From the NCBI GenBank assembly GCA_016207825.1, contig JACQZI010000007.1:124001-188000 (forward strand): a stretch of 64,000 bases of DNA. Reading direction: 5' to 3'. Position 1 is the first letter of the stretch. Each line of letters begins with the position of its first letter. The position numbers and the translations under genes are program-made. The stretch comes from Planctomycetota bacterium. Lineage in GTDB: Bacteria; Planctomycetota; MHYJ01; JACQXL01; JACQZI01. This document shows, piece after piece, positions 1-59,287 of this stretch. The notes below the pieces were generated by a model. It ran no database searches, was not told the origin of the DNA, and saw only the letters and a list, made by a program, of their open reading frames with translations.

Positions 1-452
1 GAGGACCCAATTATCTCCTCCGAAGGGGTTTTTACTACCTTGAAGGGGGTTTTTACCCGCCCATAAGGGCGATATTTCCCTGAATATAACCCATATTCAC
101 TGGAATATGACTCATATTCACCGGAATATAACCTGTATTCACTGGAATATAACTTATATTCACCTAAATATAGCTTATATTCACTCCCCTTCGGCTTATA
201 TTTACTTCCCTACAACTCGTAGGTATGCCCCCAGACTTTGGGGATAGATACCTTTTCTTTTGGGATGAATACCTTTCGCTTTGGTATAAATACCCTTTCA
301 GTTGGTATCTATACCATTCCTATCGGTATGAATACCTTTTCCGTTGGGATGAATACCTTTCACTCTGGTATGTATACCTTTTCGGTTGGTATCGATACCT
401 TTTCAATAGGTATGAACACCTTTTTCGTTGGTATGTATCCCGATACTGCCGC
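1..452. repeat. Array A: 21-bp tandem repeats in three sequence blocks
   Basis: The whole stretch has an exact 21-bp period. Block 1 has GAAGGGG/TAAGGG-type starts at 20, 41 and 62. Block 2 has TATTC or TATTT at 73, 94, 115, 136, 157, 178 and 199, next to GGAATATAAC-type sequence. Block 3 has GGTAT or GGGAT at 241, 262, 283, 304, 325, 346, 367, 388, 409 and 430. Most units of block 3 contain a palindrome of the form GGTAT-NN-ATACC. Since 21 bp is two helical turns, the cores lie on one DNA face. Two overlapping frames stay open across block 3, but that is expected of a repeat whose length is a multiple of three and I do not call a gene. The array continues to the left edge, so its full length and partner genes are not visible. 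Confidence 0.93.
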
Positions 453-478
453 CTCGCTCCCCGCTTGGTTCAGGGAGC

Positions 479-28130: not shown

Positions 28131-28392
28131 AATATAGGAATCCTACTACGTCTATATAGGAGCCCTATTACACCGGTATAGGAGTCCTATTACTTCAATG
28201 TAGGAGCCCTACTACTTCGATATAGGAGCCCTATTACTTCGATATGGGAGTCCTACTGCTTCGATATGGGAGTCCTACTGCTTCGATATAGGAGTCCTAC
28301 TACGATTTTATAGGAGTCCTATTACGATTACATAGGAATCCTATTCCGTTTATGTAGGACTCCTATTACGGTGATATAGGACTCCTATAATA
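28131..28392. repeat. Array B: twelve 22-bp palindromic tandem repeats
   Basis: The GG of the core TAGGAGTCCTA recurs at 28137, 28159, 28181, 28203, 28225, 28247, 28269, 28291, 28313, 28335, 28357 and 28379, an exact 22-bp period over twelve units. The 11-bp core is an odd-centred palindrome (TAGGA-N-TCCTA, N = G, A or C). The remaining 11 bp are more variable (TTACTTCGATA is the commonest form, others TTACGATTACA, TTCCGTTTATG). Because 22 is not divisible by three and stops occur, the array is not coding. It lies about 360 bp upstream of a winged-helix gene on the same strand. Confidence 0.97.
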
Positions 28393-28458
28393 ACTTAATA
28401 TAAGGGATGATAATAATTTAATTCGGGAGGATAAGTTCTTATAGTAGGCAGGGGATAG

Positions 28459-28543
28459 GGTATCTATACCCCCCTCCGGTTATTTTGGCCGGATTTCCTG
28501 ATAATTTAAACCAGCGTGATTAACCGGCTATTTTCCCCGAAAC
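28459..28543 (+). promoter_or_regulatory. array-boundary motif set shared with the second locus
   Basis: After array B come GGTATCTATACC (28459-28470), TTTAAACCA (28505-28513), CTATTTT (28528-28534) and CGAAAC (28538-28543). The second locus has GGTATGGTACC, TTTAAATCA, CTATTTT and CGAAAT in the same order at 52416-52515. Confidence 0.65.
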
Positions 28544-28673
28544 GCATTTAAACATAGATTCATTTCACTATATAGATATTTGGCTTTTTTTAGTTGCATC
28601 ACCTCATATCCTGATTATAATAACTGCGATAAGTAATATTAACAGGTTTCCGGTAATAAATGGAAGTTCCGGA

Positions 28674-28750
28674 TTGTGAAATCAGAATGTCTATGTTGCG
28701 AAAATAGAATGCCTGATTTGTGATTACCGGAAGATTAAAGTTGTGATGTT
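28674..28750 (+). repeat. mini-array of 22-bp TTG-repeats before the wHTH gene
   Basis: Repeats starting TTGTGAAATCAGAATG, TTGCGAAAATAGAATG and TTGTGATTACC lie at 28674, 28696 and 28718 (22-bp steps), with a fourth TTGTGATG at 28741 (23-bp step) running into the start codon. The placement suggests an operator for the downstream gene. A comparable mini-array precedes the second wHTH copy (52710). Confidence 0.75.
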
Positions 28751-29191
28751 ATGGCAAGGCGAAATGTTTTTATCGTATTAGACCGCTCTGAAATAACCAC
28801 TCTTGAGCATTTTATGAAAAAGGCGGATTTCCGAACGCGCAAGCGCGCCCAGGCAGTCTGGCTTTCCCATAATATGAAAACCGTTGAACAAATCTCAAAG
28901 GAATTAAACTGCTCGGAAAAAGCGGTTTATACCTGGCTTATGAAATACAAAAAATACGGGATAAAAAGCCTGTCTGCCCGGGACAGGAAAAAGAAACTGG
29001 CTCCCGAACAGCTTGATGAATTGATAAGCTTAAGCGGATGGTCATTCATCCACAGCAAGGGCAAATCCAAGCAATGGGAAGCCCGGTGGAGTTTTAAAAA
29101 GATGTCTTTGTGGATAAAAGATAAATGGGGTATCACCCTTTCCCCCGAACGCGTCAGGCAGATAATTCACAAGAAGCTGGCGGGAATATAA
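28751..29191 (+). CDS. standalone winged helix-turn-helix protein (IS630-N-terminal-like)
   Basis: A 146-residue basic protein with two DNA-binding units: an HTH at about 43-66 (VEQISKELNCSEKAVYTWL) and a winged-helix segment at about 112-144 (WSFKKMSLWIKDKWGITLSP and ERVRQIIHKKL). These resemble the N-terminal DNA-binding part of IS630/Tc1-type transposases, but the DDE catalytic domain is absent and the ORF ends cleanly. A paralogue with about half identical residues lies at 52929. Both are preceded by phased 22-bp arrays. It most probably binds one of the repeats; whether it acts as regulator, centromere-binding protein or mobile-element remnant is unknown. Confidence 0.88.
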   Translation: MARRNVFIVLDRSEITTLEHFMKKADFRTRKRAQAVWLSHNMKTVEQISKELNCSEKAVYTWLMKYKKYGIKSLSARDRKKKLAPEQLDELISLSGWSFIHSKGKSKQWEARWSFKKMSLWIKDKWGITLSPERVRQIIHKKLAGI

Positions 29192-51851: not shown

Positions 51852-52080
51852 GCTGAGCCTCGGACACCATTATCCACTATGTCTGATAGCAAGGCGCAGA
51901 GGAACGGTCTTCATTATGCACAGGATTCCTTAGCATTCCGCACAGGATCGGTCAGCAAGGCGCACCAGACCAGTCACCATTATCCACCGGATTCCTCTCC
52001 ATTCCGCAATGTATAAGTCACCATGGCGCAGAGGATTCCTCAGCATGATGCAAAGGATTCCTCAGCATGGCGCAAAGAGA
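51852..52080. repeat. Array C: ten 22-bp tandem repeats
   Basis: Units start at 51852, 51874, 51896, 51918, 51940, 51962, 51984, 52006, 52028 and 52050, an exact 22-bp period. The commonest unit begins GCACAGGATTCCT; the core AGGATTCCT is an odd-centred palindrome. Units degenerate toward the left, and the second half alternates among CAGCATTCC, CAGCAAGGC and CACCATTAT forms, so higher-order pairing of units is possible. The right end fades into GCAAAGAGAGAGA. Confidence 0.92.
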
Positions 52081-52134
52081 GAGACATACTACTCCCGCTC
52101 ATCCGTTCCAATTCTCATCAGTATTAGCTTCTAT

Positions 52135-52426
52135 CCCTGAGTATGGCAGATTAAACGATTAGTAGTGCCAGTCTCTATGGTCAAGATGGGTACGATAAAT
52201 GATTAAGAGGGGTAGACTAAATGGCTTAGAGCGGTAGATTAAATGATTAGTAGTGCCGGATTAAATGATAAGGATGGGTAGGATAAATAGTTGAGAGGGG
52301 TAGTCTAAATGGTTATGACGGGTAGATTAAATGGCTGGGATGGGTAGACTAAATGGCTATAGTGGGTAGTCTAAATGGTAAAGAGTGGTAGATTAAGTGG
52401 TAGGGATGGGTAGGGGGTATGGTACC
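52135..52426. repeat. Array D: thirteen 22-bp tandem repeats
   Basis: The third base of GGT (or its equivalent) in GGGTAGATTAAATGG recurs at 52147, 52169, 52191, 52213, 52235, 52257, 52279, 52301, 52323, 52345, 52367, 52389 and 52411: exactly 22 bp each. The centre varies among TAGATTA, TAGACTA and TAGTCTA; the last two are an odd-centred palindrome in opposite polarity. It ends at GGTATGGTACC (52416-52426). The unit is unrelated in sequence to arrays B and C but has the same period. Confidence 0.95.
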
Positions 52427-52515
52427 ACCACCCCCAAAAAGTTAGAATACCACTTATTAGCAGGTTTAAATCAATATAAGCAGTAATCAGCCTATTTTAG
52501 GCTCTTTTTCGAAAT
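52416..52515 (+). promoter_or_regulatory. array-boundary motif set shared with the first locus
   Basis: GGTATGGTACC (52416), TTTAAATCA (52465), CTATTTT (52492) and CGAAAT (52510) occur in the same order as the corresponding motifs after array B, with similar spacing (49, 27 and 18 bp against 46, 23 and 10). Confidence 0.6.
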
Positions 52516-52687
52516 AACCACTACCAAAAAAACACTGTTTTTTGGGTAGACCTCTACCACTTTTTAGGTGTTTTGAAGGGGTTTTGTACACTGATTCAGC
52601 AGATTTTGCTGATTTATCCGTTAAATCTGTTTAATCCGCTTACAGAACTCAATATATTAAAAATGGCGTCAAATATACGCGTTTTCA
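52516..52687. other. spacer with a short inverted repeat
   Basis: No gene. CAGCAGATTTTGCTG (about 52598-52612) is an inverted repeat, and several GGGTAGACCTCTACCAC-type bits echo array D. Confidence 0.5.
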
Positions 52688-52775
52688 TGGAATAAACGGA
52701 AAGATTGGGTTGACAAAGTGGAAGAAAATGCTTGACAAAGTGGAATAAATAAGTTGACAAGAATGGATTAGAATG
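52688..52775 (+). repeat. mini-array E: TTGACA repeats every 22 bp
   Basis: TTGACAAAGTGGAA occurs at 52710 and 52732, and TTGACAAGAATGG at 52754. A weak fourth member (TGGAATAAACGG) lies at 52688. The repeat is again 22 bp and precedes the second wHTH gene, as the TTG-repeat at 28674 precedes the first. Confidence 0.82.
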
Positions 52776-52925
52776 TCAGAATATCAGGATACCAGATGAC
52801 CAGAAAAAAACAGACTATCAGAAAATCAGAATAACAGAATGCCTAAATCTGATGCTCCCGCCAAAGGCGAGGCTCGCCGAAAGCGGCTGATAATCTGATG
52901 CTCTGATACTCTGATAATCTTTAAG
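52770..52925. repeat. dispersed ATCAGA palindromic repeat
   Basis: AGAATATCAGGATACCAGAT at the left and CTGATGCTCTGATACTCTG at the right make a long imperfect hairpin around CCGCCAAAGGCGAGGCTCGCC. A close relative lies at 57563-57660. Confidence 0.7.
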
Positions 52926-52928
52926 CCT

Positions 52929-53375
52929 ATGCCAAGAAGATGTATTTTCATCCAGCTGGATAAATCCGAGATTGCCTCGCTCCAGCACTTTATGTCCCGG
53001 ATGTCGGTCGAAGGCAACCACCACGCGCGGAAACGCGCCCAGGCAGTCTGGTTTTCCCACGAATTCCATACCGTGGAACGAATCGCCGAAGAACTTTAAA
53101 CCTCTCCCCGCTCGGTTTACCAATGGCTCAAACTCTATAAAGAAAAAGGGCTGAACGGATTTATTTATCCGATACGCTCCAGGAAATTAACCGCCCAACA
53201 GATTGATGAGATTATGTCCGTCAGCGGATGGTCCGCTTATATGATAAAAAGAAGGGTATCCACCGAAGGCTGGTCATCACGCAAAATCGCCCAGTGGATA
53301 AAAGACAACTGGAATATAAATATCTCCCATGAACGCTTAAGGCAGATTATAAATAAGAAACTGCGCGGAGGTTAA
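52929..53375 (+). pseudogene. second wHTH gene, interrupted by one TAA
   Basis: The frame from ATG at 52929 to TAA at 53373 has 149 codons, of which codon 57 (53097-53099) is TAA. Apart from that, the product is colinear with the 28751 protein: PRRCIFIQLDKSEIASLQHF, KRAQAVWFSH, then the stop inside the HTH (IAEEL-stop-TSPRSVYQWL), then SGWS, WIKDNWNINISHERLRQII. The sequence after the stop has not decayed, so the lesion is recent, a sequencing error, or bypassed. Without bypass only 56 residues would be made. Confidence 0.85.
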
Positions 53376-54518: not shown

Positions 54519-54851
54519 AAAGATAATCTCTTTCCTTAATGGGTAGTGTAAGATATTTTGGACGGGGTGTCAAGCGAAATTATGCCTGCCGTATCCCCAT
54601 TCTCAATCTTCTTGACAAATCAGGCGTTTTGGATATAATATGCGGGTTTGAAGTATAGGTTTAACCGGATTAATGAATATATCCCGCTTAACTACGTTGC
54701 GGGACGCCCGATTATATGATTAGGTGGAACGGGCGCTGATAAAGCTGATGATATTTTTGAACTGTCCCACTCCGTCCCCCGACGTTACGTCGGGAGACTG
54801 CGGGGACGCTTGATTTATACTTGATTTTAGTAGAAGCGGAGGTTATTGTCT
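54519..54851. other. intergenic region before groEL1
   Basis: It has the groEL1 promoter at 54612, a leader of about 205 bases, and a palindrome CCCGACGTTACGTCGGG (about 54779-54795) of the dispersed type. The CIRCE operator (TTAGCACTC...GAGTGCTAA) is not present. Confidence 0.65.
54612..54639 (+). promoter_or_regulatory. sigma70-type promoter upstream of groEL1
   Basis: TTGACA (54612-54617), 16-bp spacer, TATAAT (54634-54639). A strong match, far from the gene. Confidence 0.75.
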
Positions 54852-56462
54852 ATGCCCAAAGAAATCAGATACGATGAGAATGCATGGAAATCCCTTAAAA
54901 CCGGTATTGAAAAATCAGCCCGGGCAATCAAATTCAGCCTGGGACCCAGAGGACGCAACGTCATGCTCGACCAGGGCTGGGGCAGTCCCAAGATAATCAA
55001 GGACGGCAACGACATCGCCGATGAAATCGAGCTTTCCGACCCTTACGAAAACCTCGCCGCCAATATGGTCAAGCAGGCCGCTTCCAAAACCAATGACATG
55101 ACCGGCGACGGCTCCACCACAACCGTGGTCCTGACCGAAGCCATCTTTATGGAAAGCTTAAAGCACGTCAATTCCGGCGCCAACCCAATGGCCGTCAGCC
55201 GCGGCATCGGCAAGGCCGCCGATTTCGTCATCAAGGAACTCAAGAAAGCCTCCAAGCCCGTAACTTCCAACGAACAGATTAAATATATCGCCACGGTCGC
55301 CGCGGGGAACTCTCCCGCCGTGGGCGAGATGCTCGCCAACGCCATGAAAAAGGTCTCCAAAGACGGCGTCATAACCATCGAGGAAGGCAAAGGCATAGAA
55401 ACCGAAACGAAAATAGTCGAAGGCATGCAGTTCGACCGCGGATATATCTCACCTTATTTCATCACCGACCAGGAAAACCTGAAGGTGGAGCTAAACGAGC
55501 CTTACATCCTGGTTTACGAAGAGAAACTTGCCAGCACCATAGACTTAATCCCGCTACTGGAAAAGATAGCCCAGACCAAAAAGCCGCTTTTGATTATCGC
55601 GGACGAGGTGGAAGGCGATGCGCTGGCAATGCTCGTGGTCAATAAGACCAAAGGCATCCTCCAATGCGCCGCGGTCAAGGCGCCCGGCTACGGCGACCGC
55701 AGGAAGGAAATGCTGGAAGATATCGCCATCATGACTGATGCCGAAGCGATTTATAAGGATTTGGGCATAGATTTAAAGACGCTCTCCCTTGATAAACTGG
55801 GGCGCGCCAAAAAGGTGGTCATAGATTCGGAAAACACGACCCTGATGGAAGGCGCCGGCGCAACTAAGAAAATAGAGGCGCGGATAGCATCCATCCGTAA
55901 GGAAATAGAAAGAAACGATTCGGATTACGATAAAGAAAAACTGCAGGAACGTTTAGCGCGCTTAGCGGGCGGAATCGCCCAGGTGAATGTCGGCGCGGCA
56001 ACGGAATCCGAACTTAAGGAAAAGAAATCGCGCGCGGAATCCGCCCTCCACGCAGTCAAGGCCGCTAATGAGGAAGGCTTTGTCACCGGTGGCGGAGTTA
56101 CACTCTTAAAGCTTGCGGAGAAACTCGACAGCCTGAAACTGTCGGGAGATGAACAGCTCGGAACGGAAATAATGAAAAAGGCCTTGGCCATGCCCATCAG
56201 GCACATCGCCGGCAATGCCGGGCAGGATGGGTCATTGGTTATCAGGAAGATGGAACAATCCAAGGATGTTAATTTCGGCTACGACGCGGATAAAGAGGAG
56301 TTTACGGATTTGGCAAAGCGCGGGATACTGGACCCGGCGAAGGTCGTCCGTTGCGCCATCCAGAACGCTTCCAGCGTCGCCCAGCTTATTTTGACGGCAG
56401 GGGCGGCGATTATTGAAGCGCCTGAGGAAGAAGAGAAAGACGAAGAAACGCGGGGAGAATAA
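54852..56462 (+). CDS. groEL1: chaperonin GroEL, copy 1 (divergent)
   Basis: I start at the ATG at 54852, with GGAGG about ten bases upstream; a TTG two codons earlier is possible. The 536-residue protein is colinear with GroEL: LGPRGRNVMLD, the ATP loop DMTGDGSTTTVVL, VAGNSPAVGEM-like region, and VEGMQFDRGYISPYF. Ser397 replaces the catalytic Asp of E. coli position 398 (AESALHAVKA against VEDALHATRA). The C-terminus is acidic (EEEEKDEETRGE), without the GGM tail. No groES is adjacent; groES-groEL2 follow 0.8 kb downstream. Confidence 0.95.
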   Translation: MPKEIRYDENAWKSLKTGIEKSARAIKFSLGPRGRNVMLDQGWGSPKIIKDGNDIADEIELSDPYENLAANMVKQAASKTNDMTGDGSTTTVVLTEAIFMESLKHVNSGANPMAVSRGIGKAADFVIKELKKASKPVTSNEQIKYIATVAAGNSPAVGEMLANAMKKVSKDGVITIEEGKGIETETKIVEGMQFDRGYISPYFITDQENLKVELNEPYILVYEEKLASTIDLIPLLEKIAQTKKPLLIIADEVEGDALAMLVVNKTKGILQCAAVKAPGYGDRRKEMLEDIAIMTDAEAIYKDLGIDLKTLSLDKLGRAKKVVIDSENTTLMEGAGATKKIEARIASIRKEIERNDSDYDKEKLQERLARLAGGIAQVNVGAATESELKEKKSRAESALHAVKAANEEGFVTGGGVTLLKLAEKLDSLKLSGDEQLGTEIMKKALAMPIRHIAGNAGQDGSLVIRKMEQSKDVNFGYDADKEEFTDLAKRGILDPAKVVRCAIQNASSVAQLILTAGAAIIEAPEEEEKDEETRGE

Positions 56463-57673: not shown

Positions 57674-59287
57674 ATGCCCAAACAAATAATGTTCGATGAT
57701 GCCGCCTGGCAAAAGGTGCGTACCGGAATCGCCAAAATCACGGATACCATGAAAGTGACTTTAGGACCGACCGGCAAGAACGTCATTATCCAGAAATCTT
57801 TCGGCAATCCGGAAACCGCCAACGACGGCAAGACGATTGCCAAGGAAGTGGAGCTTCCTGACCCATTCGAGAATATGGGCGCCAAGATGATTGCCGAAGC
57901 CGCCGAGAAAACCGCCGAGGTAGTCGGCGACGGCACAACGACAGCGGCGATACTCACCCAGTATATCTATGAAAACGGCTTAAGGTATGTCGTTTTCTGC
58001 GCGAATCCTTCCTACATTAAAAAGGGAATCGACCGGGCAGTCGCGCTCACTGTTGAAAAGCTTAAAGGGATGTCCGTTCCAATCAAGAATAAATCCGATT
58101 ACCAGAAAATCGCGACCATCTCGGCAAACCACGACGAAACCGCCGGCAAACTCATCGCGGACGCGATAGAGAAAGTCGGCAAGGAAGGCGTCATCACCGT
58201 GGAAGAAAGCAAAGGCCGCGAGACGACGCTTGAATTCGCTGAAGGAATGGATTTTGACAAGGGCTATATCTCGCCCTACTTCATAAATAAAGCGGATAAC
58301 TTCACCGCGGAGCTTTCCGACCCGTATATCCTTATCAGCGAAAAGAAAATAACCAACGCGCAGGAACTCCTGCCGATACTGCAGAAAATACTCCTGACCG
58401 GCAAGCCTCTCCTTATCATCGCCGAGGAATTGGAAGGCGACGCGATGACGCTTCTGGTAACCAATAAACTGCAGAATGTCCTCTCCGTCTGCGCGGTCAA
58501 GGCGCCGGCATTCGGAGACCGGAAGAAAGCGATGCTTGAAGATATCGCCGCGGTTACCGGAGGCGAGATGCTTTCAGAGGAAAGCGGGCGGAAGCTTGAA
58601 AATATCACGCTCGATGAGCTCGGCCGCGCCAAGATGGTCCGTGTGGAAAAGGAAAAGACCACCATCATCGAAGGCTACGGGGAAAAGAAAGCCATCAACG
58701 CGCGCATAGAACAGATAAGGAAACTCCTTAAAACGACCACCTCGGATTACGATAAAGAGAAATACGAGGAGCGGCTCGCCAAAATACAGGGCGGTGTGGC
58801 GCTGATTAAAGTCGGCGCGCCGACCGAACCGGCCATGAAGGAAAAGAAAGCCGCCGTGGAAAACAGCGTCCACGCGGTCAAGGCGGCCAGGGATGAGGGA
58901 ATTCTTCCGGGCGGCGGTATCGCATACTTAAGGATTATCCCTGACTTAAAGAAGCTGGAAAAATCCGTTGACGATGAAAACGAGAAAATAGGCGTACGTA
59001 TCGTGGCGGAAGCCTTAAAAACGCCTTTAAGACAGATTGCCATAAACTCCGGACACGACGGCTCGGCGATTGTCGAAGAAGCCGCGGAAGGTAAAGGCAA
59101 CACCGGCTTTAACGCGATGACCGGCAAATTCGTCGATATGCTCGATGAAGGAATAGTCGACCCGACCAAGACGATGCGCCTGGCATTACAGAACGCCGCG
59201 AGCATCGCCGGTATGATGCTGACTTCACGCACCATGATTACGGATTTGAAGGAAAAGAAGGAACAGATTGAAGGCAGCGTGAAATAG
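57674..59287 (+). CDS. groEL2: chaperonin GroEL, copy 2
   Basis: A 537-residue GroEL with [11 protein letters not shown], the ATP loop [33 protein letters not shown] and [20 protein letters not shown]. Asn397 replaces the catalytic Asp at E. coli 398 ([10 protein letters not shown]). The C-terminus is [11 protein letters not shown] with no GGM tail. It pairs with groES just upstream, and dnaJ follows after 8 bp, so it is the housekeeping candidate. GGAGG precedes the start. Confidence 0.96.

What the first reader, a model, noticed from the sequence alone, without database searches (positions are those of the whole stretch)
51852..53375. Second locus of the same design with two large 22-bp arrays and a wHTH paralogue
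Seen: array C (ten units, AGGATTCCT core), array D (thirteen units, TAG-N-CTA core), boundary motifs, mini-array E and a paralogous wHTH frame, all in the same order and orientation as locus 1. The unit sequences are unrelated to array B, but the 22-bp period is the same. Co-occurrence of a rare period with paralogous genes twice in 64 kb is hard to ascribe to chance. Inference: each protein may have co-diverged with its own repeat.
Basis: partly seen in the sequence, partly recalled or inferred. Interest (0 to 1): 0.93.

Follow-up and report, generated by a model that had tools for sequence, protein, structure and literature searches.

The report
Mobile 22-bp arrays with DNA-binding gene
An uncultured bacterium and its relatives carry about a hundred short blocks of 22-letter repeats, each with its own sequence, some of which can be seen to have moved; some carry a gene for a DNA-binding protein that probably sticks to the block beside it, a bacterial counterpart of satellite DNA that could show how a binding protein and its site change together.

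Summary
At 51.9-53.4 kb lie two 22-bp arrays (C, D), a G-rich/C-rich boundary motif, a three-unit promoter mini-array and a gene for a two-HTH protein (IS630-transposase DNA-binding half, no catalytic half). The gene has an in-frame TAA, and array C shares the AGGANTCCT core with array B, so it is not wholly unrelated. The design recurs: 10 of 14 wHTH hits in the genome have a 22-bp array upstream (p about 7e-10), and 12 of 13 full-length genes in three genomes do. The resolution is mobility. Arrays occur as dispersed copies with common ends in unrelated flanks, as array-only copies (334 bp, 90%) or as array plus gene (868 bp, 92%). In one copy the same gene start carries a different array, switched at the boundary motif. 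Units are shared only within genomes. The two closest wHTH pairs have the two most similar units. Best reading: mobile minisatellite elements, some carrying their own array-binding protein. Binding and the mobilising enzyme are untested.

The parts
51888..52086 (+). Array C: about 9 units of 22 bp, degenerate (AGCATNNCGCANAGGATTCCTC-like)
52144..52430 (+). Array D: 13 units of 22 bp (GGGTAGATTAAATGGTTAAGAG-like); unit resembles that of the closest paralogous locus L003
52411..52435 (+). Boundary motif TAGGGGGTATGGTACCACCACCCCC at the gene-proximal end of array D
   Evidence: best-scoring instance of a motif at one end of 28 of 53 22-bp arrays (above the 99% null) and 0 of 11 21-bp arrays
52706..52772 (+). 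Mini-array E: three units of 22 bp with TTGAC(A) in the wHTH promoter region
   Evidence: 84% identical to the one of L003
52929..53375 (+). wHTH gene, locus 2 (148 codons), broken by TAA at 53097-53099
   Evidence: Pfam HTH_23/29/32
28132..28388 (+). Array B (locus 1), 12 units of 22 bp, palindromic core TAGGANTCCTA
28449..28478 (+). Boundary motif of locus 1, CAGGGGATAGGGTATCTATACCCCCCTCCG
28668..28733 (+). Promoter mini-array of locus 1, three TTGYGAAA-type units, lag 22
28751..29191 (+). Intact wHTH gene of locus 1 (146 aa): two helix-turn-helix domains, IS630 transposase DNA-binding half only

Best explanation
These are members of a large family of short mobile elements whose body is a tandem array of 21/22-bp units. 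Gene-carrying members hold array, G/C boundary motif, spacer with a 2-3-unit promoter mini-array, and a gene for a two-HTH protein equal to the DNA-binding half of an IS630-type transposase. Gene-less members are the array (often with boundary), about 0.2-0.45 kb. Shown: period, association, one-sided boundary motif, dispersed copies with common ends, exchange of the array at the boundary, unit families private to each genome. Inferred (about 0.6): one protein molecule spans one 22-bp unit (two turns, so all copies lie on one DNA face) and the proteins coat the array side by side. Inferred (about 0.45): it represses its own gene through the mini-array. Unknown: the enzyme that moves the element (none is encoded; presumably in trans) and whether the host gains anything. 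Units within an array stay alike by slippage and unequal exchange (inferred), so unit and protein can drift together until the unit is private to one protein. Locus 2 is such an element with a second array alongside and a now broken gene.
For: Period-22 arrays 3.6 and 3.0 per 100 kb in two genera, also in a same-genus genome, 0.02 for other periods in the own genome, none in phylum or order controls. 10 of 14 wHTH hits have an array upstream (p about 7e-10), 12 of 13 full-length genes in three genomes; the exception, L006, starts at a boundary motif cut by an insertion sequence at the contig end. Mobility: 334 bp at 90% (array only) in unrelated flanks plus a third partial copy; 868 bp at 92% (array plus gene) plus array-only copies, all starting at the same left end. 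Array exchange: L214 has 91% identical boundary, spacer and gene start but other units. Orphan arrays share units with wHTH-linked arrays of the same genome; all 15 significant pairs are within one genome. Closest protein pairs have the most similar units. Promoter mini-array at lag 22: mean best match 14.7 of 22 against about 10.7 at other lags. Fold: two HTH domains, pLDDT 86; best, non-significant matches TnsB, Pax paired domain, CENP-B. IS630 model matched over 1-107 of 299 positions only.
Against: No binding data. Fold matches are not significant (best E 0.07). Unit-protein correlation vanishes below 50% identity and could be joint descent. Roughly three quarters of arrays in the sample have no wHTH nearby, and some lie before unrelated gene families, so the wHTH may be one cargo among several. 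No terminal inverted repeats or target duplications were seen, so the transposition mechanism is open. Some short wHTH genes have no array upstream.
Confidence: 0.6

Rival explanations
1. Not mobile elements but ordinary regulators with multi-copy operators: the wHTH represses its own gene from an upstream operator array, other arrays are operators of its regulon, and similar arrays arose by segmental duplication.
For: Arrays always upstream of the full-length wHTH and of most linked genes, which point away from the array; promoter mini-arrays; orphan arrays share units with wHTH-linked arrays in the same genome.
Against: Copies have sharp common ends in unrelated flanks, include array-only derivatives and an array exchange; some arrays lie between convergent genes.
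Confidence: 0.2
2. Minisatellites made by replication slippage without function; the period reflects a mutational preference and the gene association is hitch-hiking.
For: Unit differences are mostly transitions, as expected of ordinary mutation; units turn over completely between species.
Against: One period in at least 50 arrays with mostly unrelated sequences, a shared boundary motif at one end, and 10 of 14 association with one gene family.
Confidence: 0.08
3. The arrays are transcribed and act as RNA (CRISPR-like or small-RNA arrays).
For: The boundary motif is hairpin-capable, and one array-only copy ends in a terminator-like hairpin and T-run (sequence shown).
Against: No unique spacers; no Rfam match; predicted RNA folding barely above shuffles (mean z -0.83 over 48 strands); the linked protein is a DNA-binding fold.
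Confidence: 0.05
4. Chromosome-organising sites: arrays are landing pads of a nucleoid or segregation protein, like centromere satellites or parS clusters.
For: About one array per 25 kb along the chromosome, same-face spacing, CENP-B-like two-HTH architecture (weak).
Against: Units differ between arrays, so a single sequence-specific protein is unlikely to bind all; conservation of array positions could not be tested systematically.
Confidence: 0.07

Closest known systems
BrickBuilt of Porphyromonas gingivalis (MITE containing a 23-nt minisatellite; PMC4596501)
   Same: Short intergenic dispersed element whose body is a head-to-tail array of about two helical turns per unit, with leader and tail segments, limited host range; a MITE, so without a transposase of its own.
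   Different: BrickBuilt is described as one 23-nt unit with small inverted-repeat ends; here most arrays have their own 22-bp (or 21-bp) unit, no inverted ends were found, and some members carry a two-HTH protein gene.
IS630/Tc1-mariner transposases
   Same: The protein matches the N-terminal DNA-binding half of the IS630 model.
   Different: No DDE catalytic domain, no transposon ends of IS630 type, stand-alone gene of 145 aa or 80-90 aa.
Tn7/Mu/IS21 end repeats (TnsB, MuA, IstA binding several repeats through two tandem HTH domains; PMC9527255, PMC10122671)
   Same: Two-HTH protein reading repeated sites in tandem within a mobile element; top structural (non-significant) match is TnsB.
   Different: Those elements have a few sites at each of two ends and a catalytic transposase; here about 8-16 sites in one block and no catalysis.
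CENP-B and alpha satellite DNA (from general knowledge)
   Same: Transposase-derived two-HTH protein paired with a tandem repeat whose sequence diverges between species.
   Different: Eukaryotic, one protein per genome, 17-bp box in a 171-bp unit, not mobile with its gene.

Membership tests
IS630-family transposon | N-terminal HTH DNA-binding region | tested here: met
   NCBIfam IS630 model E 1.5e-14 over positions 1-107 of 299, below its cut-off; Pfam HTH_29/32/33
IS630-family transposon | DDE catalytic domain in the protein | tested here: not met
   Frame ends after the second HTH in the full-length members; model positions 108-299 unmatched
IS630-family transposon | Terminal inverted repeats and TA target duplication | tested here: not met
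   Ends of aligned copies show neither; only one gene-carrying element family could be examined at both ends
MITE with minisatellite (BrickBuilt type) | Multiple dispersed intergenic copies of a short array element | tested here: met
MITE with minisatellite (BrickBuilt type) | Terminal inverted repeats | tested here: not met
MITE with minisatellite (BrickBuilt type) | Same repeat unit in all copies | tested here: not met
   Only 15 of 1486 array pairs share a unit beyond the shuffled maximum, all within a genome
CRISPR array | Identical repeats separated by unique spacers | tested here: not met
   Units are contiguous, 22 bp, no spacers
Iteron-type replication origin | Linked replication initiator, one array per replicon | tested here: not met
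   About 100 arrays expected per chromosome (3.6 per 100 kb); none of the genes examined beside arrays matched a replication initiator as its best family
Two-HTH (paired/TnsB/CENP-B type) DNA-binding proteins | Two HTH domains joined by a linker | tested here: met
   AlphaFold model, helices 12-74 and 85-144, pLDDT 86
Two-HTH (paired/TnsB/CENP-B type) DNA-binding proteins | Significant structural match | tested here: inconclusive
   Best hits TnsB E 0.07, Pax5 E 0.64, CENP-B E 1.4
Two-HTH (paired/TnsB/CENP-B type) DNA-binding proteins | Binding to the adjacent array | not testable with these tools
   needs EMSA, SELEX or ChIP

The most novel reading that the evidence does not exclude
A previously undescribed class of bacterial mobile satellite: each element is a protein-and-array pair that evolves a private DNA code. 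A catalytically dead transposase remnant coats its own array, arrays are swapped between elements at the G/C boundary motif, and unit and protein diverge together fast enough that even congeneric species share no units, as eukaryotic centromere satellites and their binding proteins do.
Probability: 0.35. Interest if true: 0.9.

Novelty: new variant of a known kind. Interest (0 to 1): 0.75.

Why it matters
It would give a natural series of paralogous two-HTH proteins, each lying beside an array of putative binding sites, so protein-DNA specificity change could be read directly from genomes and tested in vitro. It would also be a bacterial counterpart of satellite DNA: a large family of mobile arrays held to one helical period while their sequence turns over between species. 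The array exchange at a boundary motif points to an unknown mobilising or recombining activity.

Tried and rejected
An alignment of eight paralogues was too diverse for a pattern scan. A 140-bp sequence at nine contig ends first looked like an attachment site for the arrays; it is the end of an insertion sequence with GG..CC-type target preference that also hits non-array sites, so it was dropped. An excess of G-C or A-T swaps between units (shape readout) was tested and not found; transitions dominate. RNA families and RNA folding gave nothing. A strict G4-N-C4 pattern found boundary sites at one end of 21 of 65 arrays; the fitted motif did better. Unit dyad symmetry is significant in only a few arrays, so a general palindromic operator was rejected. 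The orthologous locus 2 in the same-genus genome lies in an assembly gap. Literature searches found only BrickBuilt as a close precedent. A binomial value printed assumed 12 of 14 loci; the recount (10 of 14) replaces it.

Full report
What was checked. The window is G000:C7:124001-188000 of a 2.89-Mb draft genome (42 contigs, 97.6% complete). At 51888-53375 I find array C, array D, a G/C boundary motif, a three-unit mini-array and a wHTH frame, as reported. Locus 1 at 28132-29191 has the same plan. Three corrections: the quoted cores are exact in a minority of units; array C shares AGGANTCCT with array B (11 sites in 64 kb, 0.95 expected, 7 in B and 3 in C); and the locus-2 gene has an in-frame TAA at 53097-53099 where its 89%-identical paralogue reads Gln.

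The gene family. The own genome has 14 hits; eight are full-length. They match HTH_23, HTH_29, HTH_32 and only the first 107 of 299 positions of the IS630 transposase model; the catalytic half is absent. The model predicts two HTH domains joined by a linker (pLDDT 86). Fold search puts TnsB first, with Pax paired domains and CENP-B among the hits, none significant. In a sample of 392 genomes of the phylum, strong hits (E up to 1e-16) are confined to one order.

Association with arrays. Ten of the 14 hits have a 22-bp array within 1.5 kb upstream and none downstream; by chance about 6% each would (p about 7e-10). Two of the four without an array are weak hits that look like other transposases, one is a fragment, and the fourth (L006) begins at a boundary motif interrupted by an insertion sequence at the contig end. 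In two other genera all five full-length genes have an array upstream.

The refuter is met. In 556 kb of contigs C7 and C10, period-22 arrays occur 20 times and period-21 arrays three times, against 0.02 per 100 kb for other periods. Most have no wHTH beside them. The same density is seen in G003 (another family); G001 (same genus) has arrays too; phylum and order controls have none, apart from one 21-bp repeat that looks like coding sequence. The genome thus holds roughly 100 arrays by extrapolation.

Why both are true: mobility. The array at L027 (334 bp) recurs at 90% identity in L033 with unrelated flanks and as a partial copy on C6. In G003 an 868-bp segment made of array, boundary, spacer and a 90-aa wHTH gene occurs twice at 92%, and array-only versions occur three more times, all beginning at the same left end GCTTTTTTGTTCTTGGCCCCAG (one copy differs slightly); no inverted ends or target duplications were visible. 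A further copy, L214, keeps the boundary, spacer and gene start (91% over 208 bp) but has a different array, the change falling at the boundary motif. Downstream of rlmN, G000 and the same-genus G001 both carry an array, with unrelated units; the left flank is homologous and short right-flank matches remain. This too fits replacement, although it could be independent insertion.

Unit families. Comparing unit profiles of 65 arrays, 15 of 1486 pairs exceed every shuffled comparison, and all 15 are within one genome (about 44% expected, my estimate from the numbers of arrays per genome); none joins the two congeneric genomes. Five orphan arrays share the unit of a wHTH-linked array of the same genome (L025 with locus 1, L022 with L007, L040 with L003, L090 with L050/L060, L074 with L063/L065).

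Co-divergence. Over 66 pairs of full-length loci the two closest protein pairs (89% and 74% identity) have the two most similar units (Mantel r 0.58, p 6e-4), and there is no correlation below 50%. Common descent of the whole locus explains this as well as selection for recognition does.

Signature features. A motif near TAGGGGGTAGGATACCCCCNCCC lies at one end of 28 of 53 22-bp arrays above the 99% level of 600 random places and at none of 11 21-bp arrays (the motif was fitted on these arrays, so the count is optimistic). In wHTH loci it is usually the gene-proximal end. Between it and the gene, 16 loci show a preferred lag of 22 (mean best match 14.7 of 22 against about 10.7 for other lags), usually two or three TTGAC-like units.

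Mechanism. Two HTH domains with a linker read the repeated end sites in known transposases (TnsB, MuA and IstA; PMC9527255, PMC10122671); that such a pair spans about two turns of DNA is from general knowledge. A 22-bp unit is that size, and head-to-tail units two turns apart put every molecule on one face. I therefore infer cooperative coating of the array and autoregulation through the mini-array. I do not know the mobilising enzyme; because the element encodes none, it must act in trans or movement is by recombination. In L050 and L060 a second gene encodes three HTH_17 domains, again DNA-binding.

Compared with what is known. The nearest described element I found is BrickBuilt of P. gingivalis, a MITE with a 23-nt minisatellite (PMC4596501). 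The differences are the private units of the arrays, the linked two-HTH gene, the absence of inverted ends, and array exchange at a boundary motif. I call it a new variant of a known kind, with a real chance that it deserves its own class.

Noticed in passing
window 41-456 (L021:4009-4483): Two adjacent 21-bp arrays (GAATATAAC.. and ATACC..GGTAT units), no wHTH nearby; a second array class with its own period.
   Followed up: partly
L030:13195-14112, L081, L085, L104, L109, L143: 21-bp arrays lie next to, usually 0-38 bp before the start of, a family of about 220-aa proteins of unknown function (YLPRKESNFAGWEKQY..), several followed by phage-tail-fibre-like genes. Array period goes with gene family (21 bp here, 22 bp for wHTH).
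   Followed up: partly
L027:4860-5645, L035:9587-10378, L036:7307-8170, L089:4491-5354: 22-bp arrays next to another unknown family (260-287 aa, VFIPEEPPxEYLEKW..) with no confident Pfam, PHROG or NCBIfam match; in most cases the array lies before the gene.
   Followed up: partly
L050:600-1604, L060:435-1334: Protein with three tandem HTH_17 (excisionase/MerR-like) domains directly downstream of the wHTH in two elements.
   Followed up: partly
Ends of G000 contigs C8, C10, C11, C17, C24, C31, C32, C35, C42 (L176-L184): Identical 140-bp end of an unassembled insertion sequence (..TTATTCAACARAGCAG) with GG..CC target preference; a second subtype shares the last 24 bp. It breaks the assembly, at one wHTH locus inside the boundary motif.
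   Followed up: yes
L061, L073 (G007), L072 (G003): Short wHTH genes with an array of period 44 just downstream instead of 22 upstream.
   Followed up: no
L108:1077-1132 and about 30 places in G000: A dispersed REP-like 55-bp repeat, sometimes inside or beside arrays.
   Followed up: no
window 54846-56462 and 57674-59287: Two different groEL genes in one cluster with a groES-like gene, dnaJ and a grpE-like gene.
   Followed up: no
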